Positions 36,059-38,223 of a DNA stretch of 64,000 bases are shown piece after piece (the stretch's first letter is position 1; every line of letters begins with the position of its first letter). The notes under the pieces are model-generated. The model did no database searches. It was not told the origin of the DNA and saw only the letters and a list, made by a program, of their open reading frames with translations. The position numbers were made by a program, and so were the translations under genes. This DNA is from Sphaerochaetaceae bacterium (lineage in GTDB: Bacteria; Spirochaetota; Spirochaetia; Sphaerochaetales; Sphaerochaetaceae), in the NCBI GenBank assembly GCA_028532765.1, contig JAQQAR010000015.1, positions 62,001-126,000 on the forward strand, given 5' to 3'.

Positions 36059-36532
36059 ATGGAAAGTTTTCTGATCGGTCTTGGAATCGGAGTAGTACTC
36101 GCCATTGTCCTCGTGGTTACCATGTCTGTTAAACGGCATAAGGAGATCCTTGCAGCAAACAAGGAAACCGAGCGGCTGAAGCGGATGCTGACTGACCGAA
36201 TGGACTTGGAAAGCGAAGGTCTGTCCAAGCTGAAAGAACAAAACGAAGAGCTGAAGAAGCAGAATGAGAACCTGCGCATCACGATGAACACATACTCACA
36301 AAAACCAGGCAGGAAGGAACTCGCTCGTCTGCAGGTCTACCAACTTGCTGTCGATCGACTGACGATCAATAGTCCTGGCTTTGGTGCCGCCTGGCAGGCA
36401 GCACTCAAGGAGAGTGAAGATGAGTTCCAGAAGACCTATGTCGGGGTACAGCCGTTTATCAAGCGTCTGATACCGATTAAGACAGAGGCAAATGTCCTCC
36501 CCCGTACGGTTGATACAGAGGAAGATAAGTAA
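36059..36532 (+). CDS. Small membrane-anchored coiled-coil protein
   Basis: A 157-residue protein of unknown function. Residues 3-25 (FLIGLGIGVVLAIVLVVTM) form one membrane anchor; residues about 30-85 are a charged heptad-like coiled coil (KETERLKRM, LKEQNEELKKQNENLR), and the last third is a compact soluble part. The overall plan recalls E. coli YhcB (ZapG), an envelope-growth protein, but I see no specific signature, so this is only a resemblance. The ATG at 36059 has GAGGAG ahead. tRNA-Leu follows directly. Confidence 0.75.
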   Translation: MESFLIGLGIGVVLAIVLVVTMSVKRHKEILAANKETERLKRMLTDRMDLESEGLSKLKEQNEELKKQNENLRITMNTYSQKPGRKELARLQVYQLAVDRLTINSPGFGAAWQAALKESEDEFQKTYVGVQPFIKRLIPIKTEANVLPRTVDTEEDK

Positions 36533-36541
36533 TTAACACCA

Positions 36542-36625
36542 GCCGAAATGGTGGAATTGGTAGACACAAGGGACTTAAAATCCCTTGACCTTATGGTCGT
36601 GCGGGTTCAAGTCCCGCTTTCGGCA
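36542..36625 (+). tRNA. tRNA-Leu (UAA)
   Basis: An 84-base tRNA: acceptor arms GCCGAAA and TTTCGGC with discriminator A, D-arm with GGTAGACA, anticodon stem AGGGA/TCCCT around CTTAAAA (anticodon TAA at 36576-36578), a long variable arm typical of class II tRNA-Leu, and T-arm GCGGGTTCAAGTCCCGC. The CCA end is not encoded. Confidence 0.97.
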
Positions 36626-36722
36626 TTATTTTATTATATTGTATTTACTTACAATCCTCCCAATACGTTACTTTATCAAAAACCCACTATACAGTTCCCA
36701 ATGAATTAACATTTACGTTTTT

Positions 36723-36749
36723 TAATCTACGCAAATTCTGCGGAGATTA
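36723..36749. repeat. 27-bp palindromic repeat, copy 1
   Basis: An imperfect palindrome with arms TAATCTACGCAA and CTGCGGAGATTA. It is a near copy of the element at 36757, with a 34-base period, in an AT-rich non-coding area downstream of tRNA-Leu. Confidence 0.7.
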
Positions 36750-36756
36750 GGGTAGT

Positions 36757-36783
36757 TAATCTACGCAAATATTGCGTAGATTA
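36757..36783. repeat. 27-bp palindromic repeat, copy 2
   Basis: A perfect 12-bp inverted repeat, TAATCTACGCAA and TTGCGTAGATTA, around ATA. No T tract beyond the arm, so an operator-like or mobile-element-end function is more likely than a terminator; no gene follows that it could serve. Confidence 0.75.
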
Positions 36784-36860
36784 TTTCTAACACTCCACCA
36801 CATATACAATGAGGGAAGGACACCAATTCAAGATTTCTCCCACTAGCACTTCAAGCAAGC

Positions 36861-36899
36861 CAAGGTAAGAACACGACTAACGTGTTCTTACCTTGTTTT
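36861..36899. terminator. Perfect 15-bp hairpin beside CRISPR remnant
   Basis: CAAGGTAAGAACACG pairs perfectly with CGTGTTCTTACCTTG around ACTAA, followed on the plus strand by TTTT. It immediately borders the first CRISPR repeat. It can serve as a terminator or as a structured end of a repeat transcript. Confidence 0.6.
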
Positions 36900-36900
36900 G

Positions 36901-36996
36901 GGTCAATCCACGCACCTACATGAGGTGCGACCAAGCAATCAGGCGATAACAGGACAATGGGCCGGTTTCAATCCACGTATCCATTACAAATACGAC
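36901..36996 (-). CRISPR. Orphan type I-C-like repeat-spacer-repeat unit
   Basis: Two 31-base repeats (36901-36931 and 36966-36996) flank one 34-base spacer (36932-36965). Read on the minus strand each starts GTCG and carries CGTGGATTGA; the first-transcribed repeat (36996-36966) ends CGTGGATTGAAA, the other ends GATTGACC, as expected for a degenerate last repeat. The repeat at 36901 has the standard I-C stem GCACC/GGTGC; the other has a different stem, CGTAT/ATACG, still paired. Repeat and spacer lengths fit type I-C. No cas gene lies in the window. Confidence 0.75.
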
Positions 36997-37182
36997 TACT
37001 ATATGCCCAAAATATTGCAGCAGAAATTATAGTATTGAGCAACCGCTTAACTCATTAGTAATATTACATATTGAATGTGTCATATAGTGTCACACTGGAA
37101 GAAAATTATTTATTTTTTGTCAAGAATCCCTTTATCATACTAATCACTTGACCCTACTCCAAACCTAAGTCAAGCTCATCCC
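36997..37182 (-). other. AT-rich stretch, possible CRISPR leader
   Basis: About 185 AT-rich bases between the leader-side repeat and the next gene, without an open gene. Its place, on the upstream side of the array in minus-strand reading, is where a leader with the array promoter would be. It must also hold the rightward promoter of the gene at 37183. Confidence 0.4.
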
Positions 37183-38223
37183 ATGGACAGAAATGTTTTT
37201 GGATTACACGCAGATCAGCTCCAGGCTATTGAGGATTTTCTGCGATTAACAAATTTCGGCAGTGACCATACACAACGGGTTGCTGACCTCTCTACCTCTA
37301 TCTCAAACAGAGATACCAGCAAGACAGCAACCCTGCTTAACGATGCATTACAAAGCTTTGGCGCACTCTATCCACTTGCACTTATTCTTGAGGTAGAAGA
37401 TACGGTCAAATCAGTATATGCCGATGCTGGAATAGACGACGCTGTCAGGGATGCGACTTTGCGTGACGTTCGTCTTTGGGTAGACCAGTACGCATCCCAA
37501 CATAATGGAGCTATTGGATTAGACCGACTGTTCTGGATCAGCAGGCATCTTTGTACAAATATCCTCCGCCTGGGTCGGTTACAGTTTGAGCCTAAGACAT
37601 TTGATTATCCCTATCAGATCTTCAAAGACTCAAATGATGATACGATGATTATCGTTGCGGGCGGAGGACTCTCCTGTGACAGGGATGGGTATCTTACTGG
37701 GGATCAGAATGCAGCGTTTTATACCTCATTCCAGGATGAAACCAGTCAGATATCTGGTCACTTGGTTAATACCACACTAGGCACGATTGATAGACAAACT
37801 ACACAACTACCTTTACAAAGGTTTGGTCTCGTAACAGATAGTGAGACATTAGTACTACATCTACACATACCCTCCGGCAGTCCTCTCACCCCGTCATTTG
37901 TTGACGAATCACTATCAATGGCAAAGATATATTTTCCATCAATTTCCTTTGTTGTTTGTTCCTCTTGGCTCCTTGACCCTGCCTTGGAATTGGTGGCAAA
38001 CCAAGAGAGCAACACCAGAGCGTTCATGCATCGATTCAGGAAATTCCCCGTAATGCATGGCGTGCCTCAGATCTATGAACGGGTCTTCGGCTTTGGAATG
38101 GTTGAAGATGATGTTCTTTCTTTCGGGGCAACCACCAGCTTACAGAGGAAGGTGCAACAAGCTCTAAAAAATGGGGTTAAGTTTCATACCATGGGTGGAT
38201 ATTTAACAAATCTCTCTAATTAA
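37183..38223 (+). CDS. Acyltransferase-like protein (GNAT_C type)
   Basis: A 346-residue soluble protein without signal peptide. It resembles two-domain proteins annotated as acyltransferases with an N-terminal helical domain and a C-terminal GNAT-like domain (PF18082/PF18164 type): helical residues 1-140, then a beta-rich half with HLHIPSGSPLTP, ICSSWLLDP-like FVVCSSWLLDPAL and FGFGMVEDD. Substrate and biological role are unknown. No ribosome site is evident at the ATG. It converges on the FAD/Fe-S gene with an 8-base overlap. Confidence concerns existence more than function. Confidence 0.65.
   Translation: MDRNVFGLHADQLQAIEDFLRLTNFGSDHTQRVADLSTSISNRDTSKTATLLNDALQSFGALYPLALILEVEDTVKSVYADAGIDDAVRDATLRDVRLWVDQYASQHNGAIGLDRLFWISRHLCTNILRLGRLQFEPKTFDYPYQIFKDSNDDTMIIVAGGGLSCDRDGYLTGDQNAAFYTSFQDETSQISGHLVNTTLGTIDRQTTQLPLQRFGLVTDSETLVLHLHIPSGSPLTPSFVDESLSMAKIYFPSISFVVCSSWLLDPALELVANQESNTRAFMHRFRKFPVMHGVPQIYERVFGFGMVEDDVLSFGATTSLQRKVQQALKNGVKFHTMGGYLTNLSN

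What the first reader, a model, noticed from the sequence alone, without database searches (positions are those of the whole stretch)
36901..36996. One-spacer type I-C CRISPR remnant without cas genes
Two 31-base repeats with the I-C ending CGTGGATTGA flank one 34-base spacer. The two repeats differ in the hairpin (GCACC/GGTGC versus CGTAT/ATACG), yet both stay paired, suggesting the stem is kept by selection or that the units come from different arrays. An AT-rich possible leader lies on the correct side. It may be a decayed locus, a solo regulatory crRNA-like unit acting with cas genes elsewhere, or an anti-CRISPR-like mimic.
Basis: partly seen in the sequence, partly recalled or inferred. 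Interest (0 to 1): 0.7.

Follow-up and report, generated by a model that had tools for sequence, protein, structure and literature searches.

The report
Orphan CRISPR guide against I-C cas7
A Sphaerochaeta bacterium that has lost its type I-C CRISPR system keeps one leftover guide unit whose spacer matches a gene (cas7) of that same system in sister species, so it could turn an incoming I-C system against itself, as orphan arrays are known to do in E. coli.

Summary
In detail: two 32-nt type I-C repeats flank one 33-nt spacer on the minus strand (36900-36996). They are the only I-C repeats in a 98%-complete assembly with no detectable cas1, cas7c or cas8c. In sister Sphaerochaeta species (G018, G001) the same site, between tRNA-Leu and a GNAT gene, holds a complete ~10-kb I-C locus; the left repeat here is the orthologue of that array's terminal repeat. 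So a whole I-C system was lost. The spacer is not random: it matches the I-C cas7 (csd2) gene of G018 and G001 at 29/33 with a TTC PAM, and encodes the same peptide KQSGDNRTMGR, with almost only silent differences. The repeat-spacer unit persists in two further species (G012, G014), also without I-C cas genes. This matches the anti-cas orphan arrays of E. coli type I-F (Touchon & Rocha 2010; Almendros 2016), here in type I-C and a spirochaete. Guard versus autoimmunity relic is not settled; expression is untested. Promoter-targeting CreR is disfavoured. Wider lead: related arrays target each other's cas genes (an I-C spacer against cas9, a II-A spacer against cas3), and most I-C spacers with hits in the genus fall at this one contested site.

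The parts
36965..36996 (-). right (upstream) I-C repeat, divergent stem GTAT/ATAC, canonical 3' end GTGGATTGAAAC
   Evidence: sequence; hairpin; found only in G000, G012, G014 among 139 family genomes
36932..36964 (-). 33-nt spacer matching I-C cas7 (csd2) of sister species, PAM TTC
   Evidence: 29/33 to cas7 of G018 and G001, shuffles at most 22/33; class-wide only orphan copies and these two cas7 genes match within 3 mismatches, control 0
36900..36931 (-). left repeat = orthologue of the degenerate terminal repeat of the ancestral I-C array
   Evidence: 36500-36931 is 87% identical to G018 up to its terminal repeat; terminal repeat of the G018 array
36997..37049 (-). AT-rich region upstream of the unit (possible promoter; contains TATAAT and TATAGT), of unknown origin
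   Evidence: 34% GC; shared with G012/G014 at 92.5%; no homology to I-C leader of relatives; no sigma-70 consensus hit
36861..36895 (+). intrinsic terminator-like hairpin with T-run on the + strand
36542..36625 (+). tRNA-Leu (TAA), left border of the exchange site
37050..37182 (.). intergenic flank homologous to the region upstream of cas3 in G018/G001; right border of the deleted I-C locus
   Evidence: 37050-37300 = L031:14918-15170, 87%
37183..38223 (+). GNAT-fold acyltransferase ORF (346 aa), right border of the exchange site
   Evidence: Pfam PF18164/PF18082; homologs in 25 of 26 genus genomes

Best explanation
It is an orphan, one-spacer type I-C CRISPR unit left at the site of a lost I-C CRISPR-Cas locus, and its spacer is an anti-cas spacer. 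Shown: the site held an I-C locus in the ancestor (orthologous flanks and terminal repeat), the cas genes are gone, and the spacer matches the I-C cas7 gene of sister species with the I-C PAM. Inferred mechanism: when an active I-C system enters (recombination of the allelic island, transduction or conjugation), its Cas5c processes the orphan transcript, its Cascade loads the orphan crRNA, binds the TTC-flanked site in cas7 and recruits Cas3 to destroy the incoming cas operon. The cell is thus refractory to re-acquiring I-C. Whether selection keeps it for this, or it is the leftover of the autoimmune event that caused the loss, is open; both share the same anatomy.
For: Complete I-C locus (cas3c-cas5c-cas8c-cas7c-cas4-cas1-cas2-array) between the same two flanks in G018 and, by ORF sizes and order, G001. 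Spacer vs cas7: 29/33 in G018 and G001, both preceded by TTC; best of 1000 shuffled spacers 22/33; best of 1000 random window 33-mers 24/33. All three in-frame differences to G018 cas7 and two of three to G001 are silent third-codon changes; encoded peptide KQSGDNRTMGR identical to G018. TTC also precedes the full-length protospacers of six I-C spacers of G018/G001 in their best targets, so the PAM rule holds in this genus; TTC is the tested I-C PAM in Xanthomonas (PMC8406640). In 395 genomes of the class only the orphan copies and these two cas7 genes match within 3 mismatches. The unit persists in three species, none with detectable I-C cas genes. The terminal-repeat hairpin is intact here (-10.5 kcal/mol) but broken in the I-C-bearing relatives (-4.3, -3.0). 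Direct precedent with experiment: E. coli I-F orphan arrays (PMC2886076; Almendros 2016 as summarised in PMC8616872, and PMC5972030).
Against: No evidence of transcription; no good sigma-70 promoter was found. In G012 and G014 the terminal repeat and terminator are deleted between CAAGCAA direct repeats, so the unit looks damaged there. Conservation of the unit (92-97%) is not clearly above its flanks (88-96%). Two of the four mismatches to G018 cas7 (positions 3 and 9) lie in or next to the seed; G001 has an intact seed (1-8).
Confidence: 0.62

Rival explanations
1. Dead relic of autoimmunity: an active I-C system captured a piece of its own (or a sister's) cas7, cells survived only by deleting the cas locus, and the unit now decays neutrally.
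For: Same anatomy; deletion of the terminal repeat in G012/G014; unit no better conserved than flanks; weak promoter.
Against: The right repeat is not a normal array repeat and the sequence upstream is not the array leader, so it is not simply the newest spacer of the old array; both hairpins are still intact in the window; both spacer changes between G000 and G012/G014 are silent relative to cas7 (chance about 0.05).
Confidence: 0.3
2. CreR-like regulatory crRNA that sat by the cas operon promoter and repressed cas expression; it survived when repeat-repeat recombination deleted operon and array.
For: Divergent repeat with kept hairpin, position where the cas3 upstream region lies in relatives, no array leader.
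Against: CreR binds the promoter region of the cas operon (PMC12737573); here the match is nearly full-length to cas7 coding sequence and no good PAM-flanked seed match exists in cas3 upstream regions or leaders (best TTC-flanked seed 5/12). Intact I-C loci of G018, G001, G017 show no such element by the repeat-core scan.
Confidence: 0.07
3. Repeat mimic (solitary repeat / Racr-type RNA anti-CRISPR).
For: Isolated repeat with modified hairpin.
Against: It has a specific PAM-flanked spacer; found on the chromosome, and the unit was not found in phages, plasmids or viral contigs.
Confidence: 0.02

Closest known systems
E. coli orphan I-F arrays (CRISPR3/CRISPR4) with anti-cas spacers (Touchon & Rocha 2010, PMC2886076; Almendros et al. 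2016)
   Different: type I-C instead of I-F, a spirochaete, a single spacer (cas7), a strongly divergent upstream repeat, and a non-homologous leader side; no experiment yet
CreR (cas-regulating crRNA-like RNA)
   Same: divergent repeat with kept hairpin beside the cas operon position
   Different: target is cas7 coding sequence with near-full match, not a cas promoter; no cas genes detected in the genome
Racr / solitary repeat units (PMC10651486)
   Same: isolated repeat-like element; an I-C example, RacrIC1, exists
   Different: has a real spacer; chromosomal; not in a known mobile element
Type I-C CRISPR-Cas locus of Sphaerochaeta G018 and G001
   Same: orthologous site, terminal repeat, GTGGATTGA repeat end, TTC PAM
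   Different: all cas genes and all but one spacer missing; upstream repeat differs

Membership tests
Orphan anti-cas CRISPR array | repeats of a known subtype without cognate cas genes in the genome | tested here: met
Orphan anti-cas CRISPR array | spacer matches a cas gene of the same subtype in related strains | tested here: met
   29/33 to cas7c of G018 and G001; G018 gene identified as Cas7c, E=4e-120
Orphan anti-cas CRISPR array | functional PAM next to the target | tested here: met
   TTC in both; same motif at other I-C protospacers of the genus
Orphan anti-cas CRISPR array | located where the complete system sits in relatives | tested here: met
Orphan anti-cas CRISPR array | expressed and able to drive interference against cas-bearing DNA | not testable with these tools
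   needs small-RNA sequencing and a plasmid interference assay
Type I-C CRISPR array | I-C repeat with 7-bp hairpin and GTGGATTGAAAC end, 33-36 nt spacer | tested here: met
   left repeat ends GACCC instead of GAAAC
Type I-C CRISPR array | leader homologous to those of related I-C arrays | tested here: not met
   no match of 36997-37049 to G018/G001/G017 loci
CreR | seed complementarity to a cas promoter with PAM | tested here: not met
Racr / solitary repeat unit | solitary repeat without repeat-spacer-repeat structure, in a mobile element | tested here: not met

The most novel reading that the evidence does not exclude
The tRNA-Leu/GNAT site of Sphaerochaeta is contested by two allelic CRISPR-Cas systems (I-C and II-A) that carry guides against each other's cas genes: the orphan I-C unit against cas7c, an I-C spacer of G001 against cas9 (35/35 in G012, TTC PAM), and a II-A spacer of G003 against I-C cas3 (26/30, encoded peptide unchanged). 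Orphan units would then be exclusion devices that decide which CRISPR system can occupy the site.
Probability: 0.3. Interest if true: 0.8.

Novelty: new member of a known kind. Interest (0 to 1): 0.6.

Why it matters
Anti-cas orphan arrays were, as far as the held literature shows, described for one case, E. coli type I-F. A second, independent case in type I-C and a distant phylum would argue that turning a CRISPR system on its own cas genes is a general way in which cas loss becomes permanent. It offers a compact one-spacer unit with sister species (with and without I-C) in which this can be tested directly.

Tried and rejected
Repeat mimic: rejected, real spacer and no viral or plasmid copies of the unit (the plasmid hits cover only about 30-43 nt on the left-repeat side, the I-C repeat itself). 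CreR: no good PAM-flanked seed in cas promoters or leaders. Rfam: nothing relevant at the unit. Stronger conservation of the unit as proof of selection: not supported, identity is within the range of flanks. Whole-unit RNA fold: z -0.75, uninformative. An apparent second cas7-like spacer in G003 II-A (LRQIGDRTM) found no target in held loci or viral contigs. My first rpoB tree ignored strand and was redone; the first check of the G003 spacer used the wrong spacer and was redone. Shmakov 2023 could not be read and Almendros 2016 was read only through reviews.

Full report
Observation. On the minus strand the window holds repeat GTCGTATTTGTAATGGATACGTGGATTGAAAC (36996-36965), a 33-nt spacer (36964-36932) and repeat GTCGCACCTCATGTAGGTGCGTGGATTGACCC (36931-36900). 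The left repeat core has zero chance matches in shuffles of the window, and a relaxed repeat pattern finds only these two copies in the 3.16-Mb, 98%-complete assembly. Cas1, Csd1/Cas8c and Cas7c are not detected in the assembly; one search had no positive control, but the PF09709 search found its gene in eight relatives. Both repeats fold into a 7-bp hairpin with a 5-nt loop.

The site. DNA from 36500 to 36931, including the left repeat, is 87% identical to G018 up to the last, degenerate repeat of its 34-repeat I-C array; 37050-37300 is 87% identical to the region upstream of G018 cas3. Between these two points G018 has 10,106 bp with cas3c, cas5c, cas8c, cas7c, cas4, cas1, cas2 and array, and G001 has the same arrangement in ORF sizes and order. 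So an I-C locus once stood here and was lost. In G012 and G014 the same unit and spacer are present, but the left repeat and terminator are gone, deleted between two CAAGCAA direct repeats. These two genomes carry a II-A locus beside the unit (for G012 cas9, cas1-size ORF, cas2-size ORF and csn2), and G012 in addition a ~48-kb prophage with integrase and terminase between the II-A locus and the tRNA-Leu side. G100, of the same species as the window, has a II-A-like locus in place of the unit and a truncated I-C terminal-repeat relic. An rpoB tree puts G000/G100, G012, G014, G018 and G001 in one clade at about 96% nucleotide identity, with G003 and G010 outside.

The spacer. It matches the I-C cas7 (csd2) gene of G018 and G001 at 29/33, in both cases directly after TTC; 1000 shuffled spacers reach at most 22/33 in that operon and 1000 random window 33-mers at most 24/33. 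TTC is the experimentally confirmed I-C PAM in Xanthomonas (PMC8406640), and it precedes the full-length protospacers of six other I-C spacers from this genus in their best targets. Read in frame, the spacer encodes KQSGDNRTMGR, the exact peptide of G018 Cas7c; differences to G018 are all silent, to G001 two of three. In 395 genomes of the class only the orphan copies (G000, G012) and those two cas7 genes match within three mismatches, with no match in the reversed control. The two differences between the spacers of the window and of G012/G014 are both silent with respect to cas7, which has a chance of about 0.05 (22 of 99 single changes are silent).

Mechanism. Best reading: an orphan anti-cas unit. 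If an I-C system enters, its own Cas5c and Cascade would use the orphan RNA and cut cas7. Shown here: the loss of the locus, the target identity, the PAM, the hairpins. Inferred: transcription, processing, interference, and benefit. The precedent is E. coli: cas-less I-F arrays with spacers against I-F cas genes (PMC2886076), shown by Almendros et al. 2016 to interfere with plasmids carrying I-F cas genes (as reviewed in PMC8616872, and PMC5972030). For selection speaks that the terminal-repeat hairpin is intact here but broken in the I-C-bearing relatives; against it, that the unit is no better conserved than its flanks and is damaged in G012/G014.

Open anatomy. The right repeat with its swapped stem occurs in no other array of 139 family genomes, and the 53 nt upstream are not the I-C leader of relatives. 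Its origin is unexplained. It could be a CreR-type element, but no good PAM-flanked seed to a cas promoter exists.

Wider pattern. Spacers of the related arrays also hit CRISPR genes: G001 I-C spacer 41 matches cas9 (G012 35/35, G100 34/35, G014 33/35, all TTC), and a G003 II-A spacer matches I-C cas3 at 26/30, encoding the same RCNREGRLV (peptide read by eye). Of the 79 I-C spacers of G001 and G018, seven have non-array hits in the genus at E<=0.001 and six of these lie at the tRNA-Leu site: prophage, cas9 or flanking genes (only up to 11 candidate places per genome were scored). Inference: incoming DNA around this attachment site, perhaps by specialised transduction, is what these systems meet and record.

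Noticed in passing
L032 (G001) I-C spacer 41 vs L074:1546-1580, L064:13077-13111: An I-C spacer in G001 matches the cas9 gene of the II-A systems of G012, G100 and G014 with a TTC PAM.
   Followed up: yes
L076 about 8995 (G003 II-A, outermost spacer) vs L031:13118-13147: A II-A spacer matches I-C cas3 helicase motif VI at 26/30; all differences look silent.
   Followed up: partly
L076 about 7034 (G003 II-A spacer CCCATTGTCCTGTCTCCTATTTGCCGTAGG): Its complement encodes LRQIGDRTM, resembling the Cas7 GDNRTMG motif; no target found.
   Followed up: partly
window 36074-36104: I-C spacer 32 of G018 matches the 165-aa ORF beside tRNA-Leu (30/33, TTC); G018 itself has a 26/33 version of the target.
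   Followed up: partly
L064:6703-6725 (G100): Truncated I-C terminal-repeat relic next to the II-A-like array in a strain of the same species as the window.
   Followed up: partly
L130-L132 (G012:C2:2898000-2948500): About 48-kb prophage near tRNA-Leu next to the II-A locus; three I-C spacers of G001 target it.
   Followed up: partly
window 36723-36783: Strong inverted repeats TAATCTACGCAA...TTGCGTAGATTA between tRNA-Leu and the unit, also found beside the Fic gene in G100 and at the matching place in G003.
   Followed up: no
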